Source of the DNA: Candidatus Sumerlaeota bacterium
GTDB lineage: Bacteria; CG03; SLGR01
Assembly (NCBI GenBank): GCA_007136585.1
Contig: SLGR01000086.1
Location: 1 to 14,958, forward strand
DNA: 14,958 bases
Reading direction: 5' to 3'
Shown here: in pieces, positions 1 through 8,633 of the stretch
How the letters are laid out: each line of letters starts with the position of its first letter
Position numbering within the stretch: the stretch's first letter is position 1
Translations under genes and position numbers: made by a program
Notes under the pieces: generated by a model
The model's database searches: none
What the model saw: the letters and a program-made list of their open reading frames with translations, nothing else
What the model was told of the DNA's origin: nothing

Positions 1-967
1 GATAAATGGAATCCGGCGGGAGATAAAGGATGTATATAGTAAACAGAGAAGAAGTAAGGCACTGCCGAATATTTTCTTCAACTCTATGTTGATAGTGGAC
101 GGTCATGAGACATATTCAAGTGATCTGCACAAATGTTCAGGATGCTTGCAGAGGACAGTACATACTAAAAATGGAGATAAGATACAGTGTTATCACAGGC
201 ATGTATTGGGGATGTTGTCGCTTGACGGAGGTTTCCCGGTACTGCTGGATATAGAAGAACAACTCAAGGGGGAAGATGAAGTAGCTGCCGCTGAGAGGCT
301 GGTAAAAAGGATATTGAAAAACTATCCCCGGGCATTCAGGATAGTAGCGGGAGACGGATTATATTTAAGGAGCAACTTTTTTAATCTTGCGTTATCGCAT
401 GGGAAGGAGGCCATCGCGGTATTGAAAGATGAAAAGCGGGATTTACTCAAGGATGCAAGAAAAATGTTCGAGAACCGGGAGCCTGAAATAATAAAGACAA
501 AAAACAAAGAAATCCAAATGTGGGACTTGGAAGGCTTCCGGTCGTGGTGGACTTTTGATAAAGAGGTAAGAGTGGTAAGAACGATTGAAACGCAGACAGT
601 ACGTCGGCAAAAAACAGGCCGGAAAGAAAAAATAATGAAAGAATGGATGTGGGCAACAACGCTGAAAACAAATATAGCATCTACGGAAGCCATAGTAAAA
701 TTGGGTCATGAAAGATGGGATATTGAGAACAAAGCTTTTAATGAAATGGTAAATACATGGCACGCCGACCATGTATATCGGCATAGCTCTAATGCGATAA
801 CGGCTTTTTGGCTGACACTTATGCTGGCATTAAATTTGTACAGAACGTTCGTAAACCGGAATATCAAACCGGAGTTTAGAGAAAAGCATACTGTAAAATA
901 TTTTTCAGAACTTATCCGGGGAGAACTTGATTGCTACGGAAATTGTCGTCAGAGATACCCTCCTTAG
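1..967 (+). mobile_element. Right-hand part of an insertion sequence (boundary not defined)
   Basis: The transposase gene enters from beyond the left edge and ends at 967, so only the 3' part of the element is here. The right end must lie after 967 and before the operon promoter near 1225. It cannot be placed, because the left terminal inverted repeat is outside the window and no target duplication can be compared. The stretch is visibly richer in A and T than the genes that follow, which agrees with recent acquisition. Confidence 0.7.
2..967 (+). CDS. DDE transposase, IS4-superfamily type (5' end outside window)
   Basis: This is an RNase-H-fold transposase that would cut and join the ends of its own element. 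The frame is open from base 2 with no stop, and codons before the Met at 86 read as sensible protein (a basic stretch ending SKALPNIFFNS), so the true start is upstream and 86 is internal. Counting from that Met, the likely catalytic triad is D5 in VDGHE, D90 in VAGDGLY and E214 in RWDIEN; the RWxIE motif is typical of the IS4 superfamily. A CSGC pair (residues 17-20) follows the first Asp. The last residues look like a normal C-terminus and no frameshift is seen, so the visible part appears intact. I cannot name the exact IS family. Base composition differs from the operon downstream. Confidence 0.85.
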   Translation: MNGIRREIKDVYSKQRRSKALPNIFFNSMLIVDGHETYSSDLHKCSGCLQRTVHTKNGDKIQCYHRHVLGMLSLDGGFPVLLDIEEQLKGEDEVAAAERLVKRILKNYPRAFRIVAGDGLYLRSNFFNLALSHGKEAIAVLKDEKRDLLKDARKMFENREPEIIKTKNKEIQMWDLEGFRSWWTFDKEVRVVRTIETQTVRRQKTGRKEKIMKEWMWATTLKTNIASTEAIVKLGHERWDIENKAFNEMVNTWHADHVYRHSSNAITAFWLTLMLALNLYRTFVNRNIKPEFREKHTVKYFSELIRGELDCYGNCRQRYPP

Positions 968-1291: not shown

Positions 1292-3664
1292 ATGACTCTT
1301 ACTGTGGGAAACGGGTCATTCAAAGAAAACGGAAAATATTTCTTTACCTACTCAGGTGAGATACATTATTTCAGAATAGAGGAGGATCTATGGGACCTTC
1401 ACCTTGAGAAGGCCCTGAAAGCCGGACTTAACACAGTCTCGACCTATATCCCCTGGTGTATACACGAGGTTCGGGAGGGTGAGTTTGACCTGACGGGGTT
1501 TACCCGGTTCGCCGGTAAGGTAAGAGAGAAAGGTCTGAAGATGATAGCCCGCGTCGGGCCGGTCTCCAATGCGGAGCTTACGGCGGAGGGACTTCCCGCC
1601 TGGCTTACACGGAATTACCCGCAGGTTTACCTGAAGGGGCGGGCTCTGAAAAACCTTCCTCACGAGACCCTTGTGGCTTATAATCATCCGGATTTCCTGA
1701 AACTTACGGGAATATGGTATGACCGGGTTCTCCCGGAAGTAAAGAAGAACCTTTTATCTTCGGGGGGATGTATATCTATGGTGCAGCTTTGCAACGAGGT
1801 GGGGATGGTTCACTGGCTTAACAAGGCTGCCGATTATAACCCTTATTCTGAGGATATGTACCGGGATTTTCTACGGGAGAGGTACAAAGATATAGAGAAC
1901 CTCAACCGCGATTACTCCGCCGGGTTCGGATCTTTTGAGGAAATATCCCAGCCGGAAGAGATAGATATCCGGGAGGGAGATAACCTGATACCTTTTCTTG
2001 ACTGGATGGAGTATTACTGCCGTTACTACGCCGAGTATTTCGGGTTCCTTTACCGCAAGGCGGAGGAGCACGGGATTGATACTCCTATTATAGCGAATAT
2101 CCCCCAGTTTTATGATTTTGATGTCAGGGGCCGGGGAGTCTACAGTCCGATGACCACGCTGATGTTCAGAAAATTCTCAGATAAGGTACCCGGGCTTGTC
2201 TTGGGCGGGGCTTACCAGATGCGCCGCCTTGATTACGAGAATTTCCACGATCTTCTCTTTACCGGGGAGGTAATGAAGATGGTAAGTTCTCCCGGAAACC
2301 CCGTAATGTGCTGCGAGCTGCAGACAGGGATAATGAGGGACCGGCCCAGGATATATCCGTCGGATGTGGAGCTTAACCTGAAGACCTCGGCCGCGAGCGG
2401 TCTTGACGCTCTTAACGGGTATATGTTCTCCGGGGGGAAGAATACCGGAGAGACCGGGGCTATGGGTTCATACCACGAGTGGCAGGCCCCCGTCTCCTCG
2501 GAGGGCCGGGAACGTCCGCATTACGGGCCCCTGAAGCGTTTCGGGGGTGTGGTCAGGAGTTTAGGAAGAGGTCTTGCCGGGGCAGGTAAGGTTGATGATA
2601 CAGTATTCGGGTTTTACCGGCCGTATTATATGACGGAGTTTCTCAGCGGTCCTTTTATTGATAAGCTTGAGAATATGAGGACGGAGCTTTTCTTTGACGG
2701 TTTCGGAAGAACCGCCGCCCTGGCAGGGTACTCTTTCTTATTTAAGGATATATCTTCCGCCGGGGAGGATCTTTCGGGTATTCCCCATATCTTCTGTTTC
2801 TGCCTTGAGATGATGGACGGGGAGACCCAGCGGGTTCTTGCCGAGTACGCTCTTTCGGGGGGAAAGCTCCTTCTCTACCCCGGGCTTCCGTCAAAGGATA
2901 CGGGAAACCGTCCCTGCGGTGTGTTCTCGGAGCTGACCGGTATCAGCGTGAGCCGGACCGTGAATGAGAAGTTCATACATATGAAAGAAACAGAGGCTAT
3001 GGTTATCCCTCCTGTCCAGGTTCTGGATCCCGGGGATAATGAGTCTGAGGTCATAGCCCGTACCGCCTCCGGCCTTCCCTGCGCCCTGAAGGTAAGAACC
3101 GGAAAGGGCTGGGTCACGGCAGCAGGGTTCGGGTTTTCCCATACCTATGATTATCACGTGGATATAACCCGTATGCTTCTTGAAAGCTCAGGGGTGTCGC
3201 CCGGTATACTCACCCCCTCCTCCAGCGAGGTGGTCACGCTTCTGAGAGGTTCGGAGGAGGGCGCTTACCTCTTTGCCCTGAACTATCACGAGATGCCCGG
3301 GACCCTGAGCGCGGAGTTTGCTCTTCCGGGTAATGGAAGGAAAGTAAGGGTTCCCTCCGAAGGCGAGTTTACGGTCCCCGGGAGGAGAGCCTTTGTTATA
3401 CCGGCCGGAATCACTCCGGGAGAGGGTGTTTTTATAGAATACGTGACAGCGGAGGTTGAGGACCTGGAGATTTCGGAGGACCAGCTCAGGCTCCGTATGA
3501 ATGGTCCCGGGCTCCGTGAAGGGGTGATTGAAACCTCCCGCGATATTTCCGGGGTGGAGGCGGGAAGCATACCGGTCAGATGGGAGTTCAACCGGGGGAG
3601 ACTGCGTTTTGAACTTGACCTCGGGGAAGAAGCGGCCGAGGTGACGATAAGGTTTAAGGGGTAA
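1292..3664 (+). CDS. Cytoplasmic GH35/GH42-like glycosidase (beta-galactosidase or exo-beta-glucosaminidase)
   Basis: This 790-residue clan GH-A glycoside hydrolase is predicted to release a terminal beta-linked sugar by the retaining mechanism. The N-terminus has the GH35 pattern (SGEIHYFRI at 21-29, then TYIPWCIHE at 51-59). The Asn-Glu pair N168-E169 is the likely acid/base, and E342 in CCELQTG the likely nucleophile. The segment DYNPYSEDMYRDFL (181-194) and the following LNRDYSAGFGSF are more like GH42. A mix of this kind, and this length, are known from archaeal exo-beta-glucosaminidases, so substrate cannot be settled between galactosides and glucosaminides. The C-terminal part (about 430-790) should hold the accessory and beta-sandwich domains. 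There is no signal peptide, so it should act on sugar brought in by the transporter downstream. AAGGAG sits six bases before the ATG. Confidence 0.85.
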   Translation: MTLTVGNGSFKENGKYFFTYSGEIHYFRIEEDLWDLHLEKALKAGLNTVSTYIPWCIHEVREGEFDLTGFTRFAGKVREKGLKMIARVGPVSNAELTAEGLPAWLTRNYPQVYLKGRALKNLPHETLVAYNHPDFLKLTGIWYDRVLPEVKKNLLSSGGCISMVQLCNEVGMVHWLNKAADYNPYSEDMYRDFLRERYKDIENLNRDYSAGFGSFEEISQPEEIDIREGDNLIPFLDWMEYYCRYYAEYFGFLYRKAEEHGIDTPIIANIPQFYDFDVRGRGVYSPMTTLMFRKFSDKVPGLVLGGAYQMRRLDYENFHDLLFTGEVMKMVSSPGNPVMCCELQTGIMRDRPRIYPSDVELNLKTSAASGLDALNGYMFSGGKNTGETGAMGSYHEWQAPVSSEGRERPHYGPLKRFGGVVRSLGRGLAGAGKVDDTVFGFYRPYYMTEFLSGPFIDKLENMRTELFFDGFGRTAALAGYSFLFKDISSAGEDLSGIPHIFCFCLEMMDGETQRVLAEYALSGGKLLLYPGLPSKDTGNRPCGVFSELTGISVSRTVNEKFIHMKETEAMVIPPVQVLDPGDNESEVIARTASGLPCALKVRTGKGWVTAAGFGFSHTYDYHVDITRMLLESSGVSPGILTPSSSEVVTLLRGSEEGAYLFALNYHEMPGTLSAEFALPGNGRKVRVPSEGEFTVPGRRAFVIPAGITPGEGVFIEYVTAEVEDLEISEDQLRLRMNGPGLREGVIETSRDISGVEAGSIPVRWEFNRGRLRFELDLGEEAAEVTIRFKG

Positions 3665-3847: not shown

Positions 3848-6145
3848 ATGAGAAAGAGAGCTATTATCCTGGGTATAGCCTCGGCGGGGCTTATTTCGTG
3901 TTTTTCCTCGCATGCCGTTTCCGGGGACCGCAGGGAGCTCCTTGTATGGGCGATGGGGCACGAGGGGACCGTCATACGGGAGATGGCACGCCGGTTTGAG
4001 GACGAGAACCCTGAGGTAAAGGTGATTACGCAAGCCATACCCTGGTCTGCCGCCCATGAGAAACTCCTTACCTGTGTTGTCGGGGGAGTCCCGCCGGATG
4101 TAACCCAGATGGGAACAACCTGGGTCGCGGAGTTTCAGTCAATGGATGCCCTGGAGCCCCTTAACAGGTATATGGAGGAGTCGGAGTTCAATTCCGGGGA
4201 TTTCTTTGAAAGCACTTTTGATATCGGGTATATTGAAGGAAAGAACTACGGGGTTCCCTGGTATATAGATACCCGGGTTCTCTTTTACAGGAAAGATCTC
4301 CTGGAGGAGGCCGGGTATGATTTACCTCCGGAGACCTGGGACGAGTTCCTGGAGGCGGCTATAAGACTTTCCGGAGAGACACCCGAAGGGAGAAGCAGAT
4401 ACGGTATAGCCCTCCCTGTAGCCGACTGGCAGATGTTCCTGGTTACCCTGTGGCAGAACGGCGGAGAGATACTTGATGTTGAGACCCTGGAAATATTTGT
4501 GGAAGATCTCGAGTTTCATGGGGCTGTGGACTTCTACAGGGAGTTTTTTGAACAGGGAGCCGCGCCGCTGGAGGACCCCGGCCACGAGCTCCTCTGGGCT
4601 TTCAGCCGCGGGATATACCCTATGTTCGTATCCGGCCCCTGGATGATTGACCAGATCCGGCGTCAGCTTCCCGAGCTGGAGGGCAGATGGGGGGTCGGGA
4701 AACTTCCGGGGCGTAAGACCAGGACCTCGTTTGTGGGGGGGAGTCACCTGACGGTTTTCCGAGATGCCGAGAACAAGGATGACGCCTGGAAGTTTATTGA
4801 GTTTATGAGCCGACCGGAGAACCAGATCCAGTGGTTTGAGATTTCCGGGGGGCTCCCGGCCAGTATCCGGGCCTGGGAGACAGGTTATTTTGATGATAAA
4901 CCCGAGGTAAGTGTATTCGGCCGGCAGATGTTTGATACAAAAAGCCCCCCGAATATACCTGAGTGGGAGGAGGTAGCCACCCGGATAGACCAGCGCCTGG
5001 AGGAGGTGATAAGGGGAGGCCGCCCTGTTCCCGAGGCGCAGGAACTCCTCAGGGGTGATATACAGCGCATACTCGCCCGGCGCCTGGAGGAGGGGGATGC
5101 CAGGGTTATATTATGGATGATCCTGATAAGCGTGGTTGCCTTTGCCGTTCTCGTAGCTTATATCCGGGGTGTGAGGATAAAAAGGTTTCTCCCTGTAAAA
5201 ACCCCGGAGAAGGAGACCGAGTATGATATAATGCGCGAACCCCCGGGCGGTATGGCTTCCCGGGGACTGCAGAGGTTTCTGATCCCCTATTTCTTCATAC
5301 TGCCTGCGGTTCTTACTCTTACCGTTTTCCTGTTTCTGCCTATATTCGGGTCGTTTCTTATAAGTCTCACAAACTGGAATATATACACCTTCTCGGAGCT
5401 GAGCAACCTCAGGTTCACGGGGTTAAGCAACTATATGGATCTTTTGAATGACCGGATATTCTGGCAGGCGCTGAGAAACACGTTTGTCTTTTCCCTGGTG
5501 GGCATCCCCCTGAATGTTACCATCTCGCTATTCGTGGCGGTTATGATAGACAAGAAATACATAAGTCACAAGTCGTTCTTCCGCGCCGGATACTTTATGC
5601 CTGTAATAACCACTCTTGTGGCTGTGGCTGTTGTATGGATGTGGCTTTATAACCCCGAGTACGGGCTCGTAAACTACCTCCTTGAAAGGCTGGGTATACC
5701 TCCTCAGAGGTGGCTCTCAAACCCGTCTCTTGCTCTTCCCTCGCTGATAATAATGAGCGTCTGGAAGAACTTCGGGACAAATATGATAATTATCCTGGCG
5801 GGGCTTCAGACCATCCCGGCAAGTCTTTACGAGGCTGCAAGTGTTGACGGGGCCGATGCCTGGCAGTCTTTCTGGAACATAACCCTGCCCTCGCTGAAAC
5901 CGACCCTGTTTTTCGTTATTGTTATGACCACCATAGGGTCTTTTCAGTTCTTTGACGAACCCTACATAATGACAGACGGAGGCCCCCTTAACAGCACGCT
6001 CTCAATGATACTCCTGATGTACAGGCAGGGGTTTGATAACTTCAACTTCGGGTACGGAAGCGCCATAGGGTACGTGCTGTTTCTCTGTATAGTGGGGTTT
6101 ACTCTCATACAGCTTTACGGAAGAAAGAGACTTCAGGAGAGATAA
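3848..6145 (+). CDS. Sugar-binding protein fused to MalF-type ABC permease
   Basis: One 765-residue chain joins two parts of a CUT1-type sugar importer that are usually separate. Residues 1-18 form a signal peptide with lipobox-like L15-I-S-C18, so the N-terminus may be lipidated. Residues about 28-415 are a MalE-like binding domain (PETWDEF at 161-167, SGPWMIDQ at 262-269, and the usual AWKFIEF region near 313-319). A single helix at 419-439 then crosses the membrane, followed by a basic linker (RGVRIKR at 440-446). The permease domain runs from about 475 to the end, with its EAA loop at 662-681 (EAASVDGADA and LP), which docks on the ATPase. The topology is consistent: binding domain outside, linker inside, permease entering from the cytoplasm. 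No stop or frameshift separates the halves. The next gene begins two bases after the stop. Confidence 0.93.
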   Translation: MRKRAIILGIASAGLISCFSSHAVSGDRRELLVWAMGHEGTVIREMARRFEDENPEVKVITQAIPWSAAHEKLLTCVVGGVPPDVTQMGTTWVAEFQSMDALEPLNRYMEESEFNSGDFFESTFDIGYIEGKNYGVPWYIDTRVLFYRKDLLEEAGYDLPPETWDEFLEAAIRLSGETPEGRSRYGIALPVADWQMFLVTLWQNGGEILDVETLEIFVEDLEFHGAVDFYREFFEQGAAPLEDPGHELLWAFSRGIYPMFVSGPWMIDQIRRQLPELEGRWGVGKLPGRKTRTSFVGGSHLTVFRDAENKDDAWKFIEFMSRPENQIQWFEISGGLPASIRAWETGYFDDKPEVSVFGRQMFDTKSPPNIPEWEEVATRIDQRLEEVIRGGRPVPEAQELLRGDIQRILARRLEEGDARVILWMILISVVAFAVLVAYIRGVRIKRFLPVKTPEKETEYDIMREPPGGMASRGLQRFLIPYFFILPAVLTLTVFLFLPIFGSFLISLTNWNIYTFSELSNLRFTGLSNYMDLLNDRIFWQALRNTFVFSLVGIPLNVTISLFVAVMIDKKYISHKSFFRAGYFMPVITTLVAVAVVWMWLYNPEYGLVNYLLERLGIPPQRWLSNPSLALPSLIIMSVWKNFGTNMIIILAGLQTIPASLYEAASVDGADAWQSFWNITLPSLKPTLFFVIVMTTIGSFQFFDEPYIMTDGGPLNSTLSMILLMYRQGFDNFNFGYGSAIGYVLFLCIVGFTLIQLYGRKRLQER

Positions 6146-6147
6146 AA

Positions 6148-6996
6148 ATGGCTAAGAAATCACAGGAATACATACTGGAGAGAAAGGTGAAAAAGACCGT
6201 CATATATCTGATTCTTATCGGCGGGATGATAATAACCCTCACTCCTTTTTTCTGGTCAATATCCACCTCGTTAAAGCCGCGGGCCGGGATATTTTCAATG
6301 CCCCCTGAGTGGGTCCCCTCGGAGCCCACACTTGAGCATTACGGAAGGCTTTTTGACGAGGTGGATTTTCTGCGGCACTTCATAAACAGCACCGTTGTTG
6401 CCGTTGCTGTTACACTGCTTGGGCTTTTTCTAAACTCCCTGGCGGGGTACGCCTTTGCCAAGTTCAGGTTTCCCGGAAGAGACCGGCTTTTCTCTATTCT
6501 CGTGCTTTCCCTTATGGTTCCGGGGCAGGTGACGATGATGCCGGTATTTATGATACTCAGGTCACTGGGGCTGATAAACACCTATACGGGGCTTATAATA
6601 ACCGGGACCATATCTGTTTTTGGAATATTTCTTATAAGGCAGTTTGTTCTTACTATCCCCAACGACCTGATCGAAGCAGCCAGGATAGACGGATGCGGCG
6701 AGTTTGCCATTTACTGGAAGGTTATACTTCCTCTATGCAAGCCCGTTCTGGCGACCCTGGGTATATTCACTTTTATGTCCTCGTGGAACAGCTTCCTCTG
6801 GCCCCTTATTGTTATGGTCAGGGAGGAGATGTACACCCTTCCGGTTGCGCTTGCGAACCTCAGCGGGCAGCACGCCACAGATTACGGGCTGCTTATGGCG
6901 GGGGCCGTTGTGGTGGTTATACCGGTAATACTGGTTTTCCTTGCGGCCCAGAAATATATTATTGAGGGGATAAGCACCACGGGGCTGAAAGGATAG
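6148..6996 (+). CDS. MalG-type sugar ABC transporter permease
   Basis: This is the second membrane half of the importer, 282 residues, the usual length for the CUT1 MalG/UgpE group. A short basic N-terminus is followed by a first helix at about 17-38, and five more hydrophobic segments lie at roughly 78-105, 113-135, 143-165, 202-222 and 248-268. The EAA loop begins at E176 (EAARIDGCGEFAIYWKVILP), with the conserved Gly at 182, and contacts the ATPase. It pairs with the permease domain of the fused protein immediately upstream, from which it is separated by two bases. AGGAGA just before the upstream stop serves as its ribosome binding site, so translation is probably coupled. Nothing is missing. 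Confidence 0.95.
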   Translation: MAKKSQEYILERKVKKTVIYLILIGGMIITLTPFFWSISTSLKPRAGIFSMPPEWVPSEPTLEHYGRLFDEVDFLRHFINSTVVAVAVTLLGLFLNSLAGYAFAKFRFPGRDRLFSILVLSLMVPGQVTMMPVFMILRSLGLINTYTGLIITGTISVFGIFLIRQFVLTIPNDLIEAARIDGCGEFAIYWKVILPLCKPVLATLGIFTFMSSWNSFLWPLIVMVREEMYTLPVALANLSGQHATDYGLLMAGAVVVVIPVILVFLAAQKYIIEGISTTGLKG

Positions 6997-7017: not shown

Positions 7018-8130
7018 ATGGCTGATGTAGTATTTAAATCCGTTTCAAAGATATACAGGGGAGGTGTAGTAGGCTGCAGGGATATAGACCTGCGAATAAA
7101 CGACAAGGAGTTCTGCGTGCTTGTGGGCCCTTCAGGTTGCGGTAAATCAACTACACTGAGAACGATAGCAGGGCTGGAAGAGGTTACTTCCGGAGAGCTC
7201 TGGATAGGGGACAGTATGGTCAATGAAATGCCCCCGAAAGACCGTGATATAGCAATGGTTTTTCAGAATTACGCGCTCTATCCTCATATGAAGGTCAGGG
7301 ATAATATGGCCTTCGGTCTCAAGCTCAGGAAATATCCGAAAAAGGAGATAGAGCACAGGGTCCGGGAAGCTTCGGAAATACTCGGCATAACCAATCTTCT
7401 GGAAAGGCGGCCGAAGCAGCTCTCCGGGGGGCAGAGGCAGCGGGTGGCCCTGGGGCGGGCCATAGTCAGGAAACCCAAGGTCTTTCTTTTTGACGAGCCG
7501 CTTTCCAACCTTGACGCCAAGCTGAGAGTGCAGATGAGGGTTGAGATAAAACGGCTGCACGCGCGTCTCCGGACAACAATGGTATATGTTACCCACGACC
7601 AGGTTGAGGCTATGACCATGGGAGACAGGATAGTTGTAATGCAGGACGGGGTGATCAAGCAGGTCGACGAACCCGTAAGGCTCTATGATAACCCCCGGTG
7701 CAGGTTCGTAGCGGGTTTTATGGGGTCTCCTGCAATGAATTTTTTTGACTGCTCCGTCAGCAGGAAAAAAAATGAAGACGATATACTTCTTGAAGGCGAC
7801 GGTTTCAGCATATCCCTCAGCGGGATTGAGTTCAGTCATCTTACATCGTACAGGGGCAGAAAGGTTACCCTGGGGATACGTCCCGAAGATATAATTGACC
7901 GGCTCTACTCCCAGGTAACCGCTTCGGAGAACCTTGTGCGCGCCCAGGTAATAACCGAAGAACCTATGGGGAGCGAGAATTACATACACGCAACTGTGGG
8001 GGAAAAGAACCGGCTTGTAATGAAAACTTCAGGGTCAAACCGGGTTAATATGGGAGATGATCTTGAACTTGTTTTCAAACCCGGAAAACTCCATTTTTTT
8101 GAGATAAAATCCGGTGAAAGGATAGTGTAG
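7018..8130 (+). CDS. Sugar ABC transporter ATPase (MalK/MsmX/UgpC type)
   Basis: This 370-residue protein is the ATP-hydrolysing subunit that should drive the importer encoded just upstream. All core motifs are present: Walker A GPSGCGKST (37-45), Q-loop Q83, signature LSGGQ (135-139), Walker B with FLFDEP (156-161) and the switch His H193 in VTHDQ. The C-terminal third, from about 240, is the TOBE/regulatory region typical of the MalK/UgpC group, including the conserved LGIRPEDI at 285-292. AAAGGAG at 7001-7007 precedes the ATG. Many bacteria use one shared MsmX-like ATPase for several sugar transporters; here it lies in the operon, which suggests a dedicated subunit, though sharing cannot be excluded. 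The gene looks intact. Confidence 0.95.
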   Translation: MADVVFKSVSKIYRGGVVGCRDIDLRINDKEFCVLVGPSGCGKSTTLRTIAGLEEVTSGELWIGDSMVNEMPPKDRDIAMVFQNYALYPHMKVRDNMAFGLKLRKYPKKEIEHRVREASEILGITNLLERRPKQLSGGQRQRVALGRAIVRKPKVFLFDEPLSNLDAKLRVQMRVEIKRLHARLRTTMVYVTHDQVEAMTMGDRIVVMQDGVIKQVDEPVRLYDNPRCRFVAGFMGSPAMNFFDCSVSRKKNEDDILLEGDGFSISLSGIEFSHLTSYRGRKVTLGIRPEDIIDRLYSQVTASENLVRAQVITEEPMGSENYIHATVGEKNRLVMKTSGSNRVNMGDDLELVFKPGKLHFFEIKSGERIV

Positions 8131-8162: not shown

Positions 8163-8633
8163 ATGGCAGAAGAAAAGGAAAAATGCAGAAGAAGTAATTT
8201 TCTGACAGACAGGATCCAGATCAAGTACGCGCTTATGCTCTGCGGAGTTATGGCTCTGATGCTGGTTCTGACGCAGGTTTACACTATGCTTTCCCTGCGC
8301 TCCATTCTCCGGCACGTGGTCTCTTCCGAGTACAGTCACAAGATAACCGAGCTCCAGTTTCATCTTCTTATCTCGGGGATCGCATATATAGCGGCGGTTG
8401 CGGTGCTTTCTTTTTACGTGACAAACAAGATAGCGGGACCGGTTTACAGGATACAGCTTGGTGCAAGGAAAATCGCGAAGTCCCGGGATCTTAACTACCG
8501 ATTTCATATAAGGAAAAAGGACGAGTTCCAGGATGTTGTAAAAACCCTGAACCTTATGCTGGATAAGCTCCAGGAAAACCACGAACCCCGGTCCGGCGGG
8601 GGCGATGAGGGCGCTCCGAACCCTTCAGGGTGA
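8163..8633 (+). CDS. Two-helix membrane protein with stand-alone HAMP domain
   Basis: This 156-residue inner-membrane protein has a basic cytoplasmic N-terminus, a first helix at about 22-44, a short outer loop (about 45-64), a second helix at about 65-87, and then a HAMP-like segment (about 86-138) that starts TNKIAGPVYRIQ and contains the DEF of the second HAMP helix. The tail is Gly/Pro-rich and ends without a kinase, cyclase or chemotaxis domain. HAMP domains normally relay signals between membrane helices and an output domain, so this may act as a partner or scaffold for another protein. The outer loop is too short for a sugar-sensing domain. GGGAGG at 8151-8156 is the ribosome binding site. 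It lies 32 bases after the ATPase gene and probably ends the operon; a role in the sugar system is a guess. Confidence 0.75.
   Translation: MAEEKEKCRRSNFLTDRIQIKYALMLCGVMALMLVLTQVYTMLSLRSILRHVVSSEYSHKITELQFHLLISGIAYIAAVAVLSFYVTNKIAGPVYRIQLGARKIAKSRDLNYRFHIRKKDEFQDVVKTLNLMLDKLQENHEPRSGGGDEGAPNPSG

What the first reader, a model, noticed from the sequence alone, without database searches (positions are those of the whole stretch)
3848..6145. Sugar-binding protein and permease fused into one chain in a CUT1-type importer
In most MalEFGK-type sugar importers the binding protein is a separate gene. Here a signal-bearing binding domain (residues about 28-415), a single membrane helix (419-439), a basic linker and a full MalF-like permease (from about 475) form one open frame. 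The added helix places the binding domain outside and the linker inside, as the permease needs, so the design is mechanically sensible. Fusions of this kind are well known in glycine-betaine and amino-acid importers (OpuA, GlnPQ) but uncommon in this sugar class. A tethered domain would raise local receptor concentration, and each transporter would carry exactly one receptor because the MalG partner is not fused.
Basis: partly seen in the sequence, partly recalled or inferred. Interest (0 to 1): 0.7.

Follow-up and report, generated by a model that had tools for sequence, protein, structure and literature searches.

The report
Sugar importer with built-in receptor
A bacterial sugar importer has its sugar-catching receptor joined to its membrane pore in one protein chain; the join is real, is shared by relatives in many phyla, has arisen several times, and this one most likely imports short beta-1,2-glucan chains.

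Summary
The fusion is real. ORF 3848-6145 encodes a 765-residue protein: N-terminal hydrophobic segment, sugar-binding domain, one added membrane helix, basic linker and a MalF-like permease, followed by MalG and MalK genes. The same order, in one open frame, occurs in 15 members of its own clade and in at least six further lineages. In a 290-genome sample, 40 genomes from 31 families carry at least one such fusion (hand count, lower bound). It is therefore neither a frameshift artefact nor rare, although I found no paper in the searchable library describing fusion in CUT1 sugar importers. The nearest unfused relatives keep separate receptor and permease genes without the added helix. Every fusion checked has a helix between the domains, as membrane topology requires. 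Substrate: the receptor's best solved match is the beta-1,2-glucooligosaccharide receptor Lin1841, the neighbouring GH35 enzyme's best match is a beta-1,2-glucosyltransferase with both catalytic residues kept, and sister operons carry GH144-type and GH94 beta-1,2-glucan enzymes. Best reading: a CUT1 importer of sophoro-oligosaccharides with one tethered receptor per transporter. New variant of a known kind.

The parts
1292..3664 (+). GH35 enzyme of the IaSGT (beta-1,2-glucosyltransferase) type, 790 aa, no signal peptide evident, so cytosolic
   Evidence: Best solved match 7vkw/7vkx beta-1,2-glucosyltransferase E 2e-94, next group E 1e-47; acid/base E169 and nucleophile E342 align with published E176 and E343 of IaSGT
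3848..6145 (+). Fused receptor-permease (MalE-MalF type), 765 aa
3848..3925 (+). N-terminal signal segment, residues 1-26 (most relatives lack a cysteine at the lipobox-like position, so probably an ordinary signal peptide)
   Evidence: hydrophobic stretch, N-termini aligned
3929..5092 (+). Substrate-binding domain, residues 28-415, Lin1841-like
   Evidence: phmmer 5ysb E 1e-85; VIA-align Z 50.2, rmsd 2.0 over 384 residues
5102..5164 (+). Added transmembrane helix, residues 419-439
   Evidence: hydropathy, AF2 helix 419-446, equivalent helix in every fused relative checked
5165..5269 (+). Basic cytoplasmic linker, residues 440-474
   Evidence: charge count; low pLDDT around 440-470
5270..6142 (+). 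MalF-like permease domain, residues 475-765, EAA motif at residues 662-681
   Evidence: Pfam; SugA 8ja7 E 6e-34; motif
6148..6996 (+). MalG-like permease, EAA motif from residue 176
7018..8130 (+). MalK/UgpC-type ATPase with Walker A, signature, Walker B, H-loop, and OB/TOBE regulatory domains
   Evidence: NF008653 489 bits, cut-off 432; Pfam; motifs

Best explanation
It is a CUT1 (MalFGK2-type) importer whose receptor is permanently tethered to the MalF subunit. The receptor domain folds outside the inner membrane; the added helix brings the chain back in, so the permease starts at its normal cytoplasmic N-terminus; MalG and two MalK subunits complete the transporter, giving one receptor per transporter. 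The receptor catches beta-1,2-linked gluco-oligosaccharides (sophoro-oligosaccharides) and docks on its own MalF/MalG mouth; the imported sugar is processed in the cytosol by the neighbouring GH35 enzyme and, in relatives, GH94 phosphorylase. Shown by sequence: single frame, domain order, conservation, the helix in every fusion checked, intact EAA and ATPase motifs, conserved gene company. Inferred: substrate, docking in cis, stoichiometry, no free receptor pool.
For: Domains in one frame. 15 fused members of the same clade, in records labelled Elusimicrobia, Endomicrobia, Caldiserica, Clostridia, Riflebacteria and Wallbacteria among others. Nearest unfused relatives (L045, L053, L126, L059, Thermotogota) lack the helix. 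All 22 fusions verified have a hydrophobic 19-residue segment between the domains, followed by K/R-rich sequence in nearly all. AF2 model pLDDT 92.8, pTM 0.87. Receptor closest to Lin1841 by sequence and fold, which binds Sop3-5 (PMC12369401). GH35 closest to IaSGT with both catalytic Glu. Relatives' operons: PF10091|fusion|MalG|GH94 (L036, L039), fusion|MalG|GH35|GH94 (L038), GH94|fusion|MalG|GH35|GH94 (L037), fusion|MalG|GH94|GH35 (L043), fusion|MalG|GH94 (L041), fusion|MalG|GH35 (L132). A GH144-type protein (5gzh E 1.5e-138) is about 13 kb from the fusion in the same-family genome G001. The same set of families forms the characterised Ignavibacterium album beta-1,2-glucan cluster (PMC8861115).
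Against: No expression, proteomic or transport data. In the window and its two closest relatives an in-frame ATG lies near the start of the permease, so a free permease could also be made. Ligand-contact residues were not compared with Lin1841. The AF2 model lacks MalG and MalK, and its coordinates could not be inspected, so docking in cis rests on pTM alone. The window's own genome has its PF10091 and GH94 genes on other contigs.
Confidence: 0.82

Rival explanations
1. The chain is fused but the sugar is different: a beta-galactoside or glucosaminide importer, as generic GH35/GLMA family names suggest.
For: Pfam names the neighbour GH35, GH42 and GLMA-like; NCBIfam gives exo-beta-D-glucosaminidase at 172 bits and, weakly, beta-galactosidase.
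Against: Both NCBIfam hits are far below cut-off (172 of 1500; 26 of 500). Against solved proteins the beta-1,2-glucosyltransferase is about 47 orders of magnitude better in E-value than GlmA/beta-galactosidase, and receptor and operon partners point the same way.
Confidence: 0.12
2. The gene is one frame but gives two products: the full fusion plus a free permease from an internal start near residue 462/469, or cleavage in the linker releasing the receptor.
For: In-frame ATG codons at 5231 and 5252, with AAGGAG upstream of the first at a long spacing; the ATG at about the second position is kept in the two closest relatives, one with a good ribosome-binding match. The linker is the least confident part of the model.
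Against: Many fused relatives (e.g. L036, L037, L116, L117, L118, L161, L170) have no in-frame start codon in the linker (L036 is listed there as its copy L008). The ribosome site at 5231 is poorly spaced compared with those of malG and malK.
Confidence: 0.1
3. Sequencing or assembly artefact: two real genes joined by a missed stop or frameshift.
For: The window comes from a draft genome (88% complete, 257 contigs). One relative, L044, does show a frame break inside its permease.
Against: Independent assemblies from many species have the same open frame with an added helix and linker that unfused relatives lack.
Confidence: 0.01

Closest known systems
CUT1 maltose/trehalose importers (E. coli MalEFGK2, mycobacterial LpqY-SugABC)
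   Same: Same receptor family, MalF and MalG permeases with EAA motif, MalK/UgpC ATPase
   Different: There the receptor is a separate soluble protein or lipoprotein; here it is joined to MalF through an added helix
OpuA (glycine betaine) and GlnPQ (amino acids)
   Same: Receptor covalently linked to the permease; OpuA uses a hydrophobic membrane anchor and a short 11-residue linker between them (PMC11065425)
   Different: Different receptor and permease families; in OpuA (own knowledge) the receptor follows the permease and two identical fused chains give two receptors, here it precedes the permease and only one of two different permeases carries it
Lin1841 beta-1,2-glucooligosaccharide-binding protein, Listeria innocua
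   Same: Closest solved receptor by sequence (E 1e-85) and fold (Z 50.2, rmsd 2.0, 36% identity)
   Different: Lin1841 is a stand-alone binding subunit
Ignavibacterium album IaSGT beta-1,2-glucan gene cluster
   Same: GH35 of the IaSGT type, GH94 and GH144 homologues, Lin1841-type receptor (PMC8861115)
   Different: The related Ignavibacteriales locus L053 has separate receptor and permease genes; I did not inspect the I. album permease itself
NF043073 spermidine/putrescine permease/substrate-binding protein (MMSYN1_0195)
   Same: A named family with a permease and a receptor in one chain, as its NCBIfam title states
   Different: Polyamine class; it matched only the MalG protein weakly, 24.5 bits against a cut-off of 1250

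Membership tests
CUT1 sugar ABC importer | Family-1 sugar-binding receptor domain | tested here: met
   SBP_bac_1 147.7 bits, cut-off 26
CUT1 sugar ABC importer | Two different permease subunits, MalF-like and MalG-like, each with an EAA motif | tested here: met
   MalF and MalG parts separated by profile scores
CUT1 sugar ABC importer | MalK/UgpC-type ATPase with C-terminal regulatory domain | tested here: met
   NF008653 489 bits over cut-off 432; OB_MalK and TOBE_2
CUT1 sugar ABC importer | Transports a carbohydrate | not testable with these tools
   needs uptake or binding assay
OpuA/GlnPQ-type fused importers (works like) | Receptor covalently joined to the permease through a membrane anchor | tested here: met
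OpuA/GlnPQ-type fused importers (membership) | Permease present as two copies of the fused chain, giving two or more receptors per transporter | tested here: not met
   MalG is a separate, unfused gene
OpuA/GlnPQ-type fused importers (membership) | Receptor and permease of the betaine or amino-acid families | tested here: not met
   sugar families found instead
Beta-1,2-glucooligosaccharide receptor (Lin1841 type) | Closest among solved receptors by sequence and fold | tested here: met
Beta-1,2-glucooligosaccharide receptor (Lin1841 type) | Conserved ligand-contact residues and sophoro-oligosaccharide binding | not tested
   source paper not held; binding needs an assay
IaSGT-type GH35 (window 1292-3664) | Catalytic Glu pair at IaSGT E176/E343 and no signal peptide | tested here: met
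   E169 and E342 aligned; signal peptide judged by eye only

The most novel reading that the evidence does not exclude
Joining the receptor to MalF is a recurrent, widespread and little-described design among CUT1 sugar importers. It arose in several lineages, always with a helix inserted to keep the topology, and it replaces the usual large free receptor pool by one receptor per transporter.
Probability: 0.65. Interest if true: 0.6.

Novelty: new variant of a known kind. Interest (0 to 1): 0.45.

Why it matters
CUT1 importers are the standard picture of a free receptor in large excess over its transporter (30- to 50-fold for E. coli maltose; PMC9045158). A natural one-to-one tethered version, found in several lineages and in 40 of 290 sampled genomes, gives matched fused and unfused pairs with the same likely sugar and closely related parts (window clade versus L045, L053, Thermotogota). 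That makes the cost and benefit of receptor excess versus tethering directly testable. It also assigns a likely sugar (beta-1,2-glucan fragments) to an importer in poorly known lineages.

Tried and rejected
Frameshift or assembly artefact: rejected by the many independent open frames. Internal translation start as a general rule: rejected for the family, left open for the three closest members. Lipoprotein anchoring: the window has a lipobox-like LISC, but most aligned relatives lack the cysteine, so I do not rely on it. Prior literature: my phrase searches for fused CUT1 receptors found nothing, but the library holds only part of the literature and no domain-architecture database was searched; such proteins may be listed there. 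Plasmid collection: the best annotated matches are separate genes. The Lin1841 structure paper is not held. Structure search of the whole model was filled by the receptor domain, so the permease fold rests on sequence matches. A joint model of the fusion with MalG and MalK could not be run. One paper look-up used a term the tool cannot take and was not repeated.

Full report
What is there. ORF 3848-6145 reads through 765 codons without a stop. It holds a family-1 sugar-binding domain and a binding-protein-dependent permease domain, with an added hydrophobic helix and a basic linker between them. AlphaFold2, fed with the protein and 65 relatives from fetched loci, gives mean pLDDT 92.8 and pTM 0.87, with helices at 2-23, 419-446 and from 469 on. 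MalG follows at 6148, MalK/UgpC at 7018, and both have the expected motifs.

Is it an artefact? No. A scan of species genomes and of relatives found the same order in one frame in other assemblies. On the permease tree the window's clade holds 11 fused members with bootstrap 99 / SH-aLRT 88, and 15 when more are added. The receptor tree recovers 12 fused members together (SH-aLRT 89), with three further ones nearby. The nearest unfused relatives (L045; L053, L126, L059; Thermotogota L042, L046, L047, L057; L048) have a separate receptor that stops soon after its fold and a separate permease with no extra helix. The fusion therefore came with a gained helix and linker. L044 has a frame break inside the permease and is not counted as intact.

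How common is it? A profile of the fused family was run over 290 genomes, most from different families. Counting by hand the matches that run from receptor to permease in one frame with no stop, I find 47 complete ones plus 3 cut by contig ends, in 40 genomes of 31 families; 171 genomes had any strong match. At most three candidates per genome were scored, so this is a lower bound on fusions; the sample was drawn as relatives of the window genome, so it is not random. I checked 22 of these loci: all have a hydrophobic stretch between the domains, mostly followed by basic residues. Fused rows fall into 7 pure groups on the permease tree; the parsimony count is 7 changes (3 forced by well-supported branches) there, 6 (4 forced) on the careful smaller tree, and 11 (6 forced) on the receptor tree. 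Long branches make the exact number unsure, but several origins, or origins and losses, are needed. So 'uncommon in this sugar class' is not supported. In the plasmid collection, which is rich in well-studied bacteria, the best annotated matches are separate genes, which may be why the design is little noticed.

What does it carry? The receptor's best solved match is Lin1841 (E 1e-85; fold Z 50.2, rmsd 2.0 over 384 residues, 36% identity), which binds sophoro-oligosaccharides of 3-5 units (PMC12369401). The neighbouring GH35 protein at 1292-3664 matches the beta-1,2-glucosyltransferase IaSGT at E 2e-94, far ahead of GlmA and beta-galactosidases; its E169 and E342 align with IaSGT E176 and E343, the published acid/base and nucleophile. 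Relatives' operons add GH94 and PF10091 proteins; [quoted passage not shown] The same set of families forms the Ignavibacterium album cluster (PMC8861115). The window's own genome has PF10091 and GH94 genes, on other contigs. I put the substrate at about 0.8-0.85.

How it probably works. Shown: one chain, one added helix, normal permease start on the inside, intact coupling and ATPase motifs. Inferred: the receptor domain stays on its own MalF and docks over the MalF/MalG mouth. pTM 0.87 suggests a defined placement of receptor and permease, but I could not inspect coordinates, and MalG and MalK were absent. No second receptor gene was seen in the fused operons examined, and the window genome's only other match is a separate importer on contig C209 with a 28% identical receptor, so one receptor per transporter is likely. 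This gives up the large free receptor pool of the maltose system (30- to 50-fold excess; PMC9045158). OpuA is the nearest working analogue and also uses a hydrophobic anchor and short linker (PMC11065425), but its receptor follows the permease and it has two receptors per transporter; this protein belongs with CUT1.

Limits. No experiment supports full-length product, transport or sugar. In the window and its two closest relatives an in-frame ATG near the permease start leaves room for a second, permease-only product. The literature search covers only open-licence papers, so 'little described' is a statement about that library.

Noticed in passing
window 8163-8633: 156-residue protein with a HAMP domain and no output domain found by Pfam, directly downstream of malK.
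   Followed up: no
window 2-967: DDE transposase (PF01609) cut by the contig start; the window is the whole contig C28.
   Followed up: no
L150:44-5584 (G000:C169), also L147:7158-12779 and L152:994-6294: GH94 protein of about 1770-1880 residues; in the copy scanned (L147) Pfam finds only the GH94 domains in the C-terminal part, leaving about 1100 N-terminal residues unassigned.
   Followed up: partly
L044:1136-3462: Fused gene of the Candidatus Theseobacter exili record with a frame break inside the permease; error or decay not resolved.
   Followed up: partly
L035:4935-5972: LacI-type regulator between the GH35 and fusion genes in the closest relative; absent from the 183-base gap in the window.
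   Followed up: no
L115, L116, L117 (genome G019): One genome carries three different receptor-permease fusions.
   Followed up: partly
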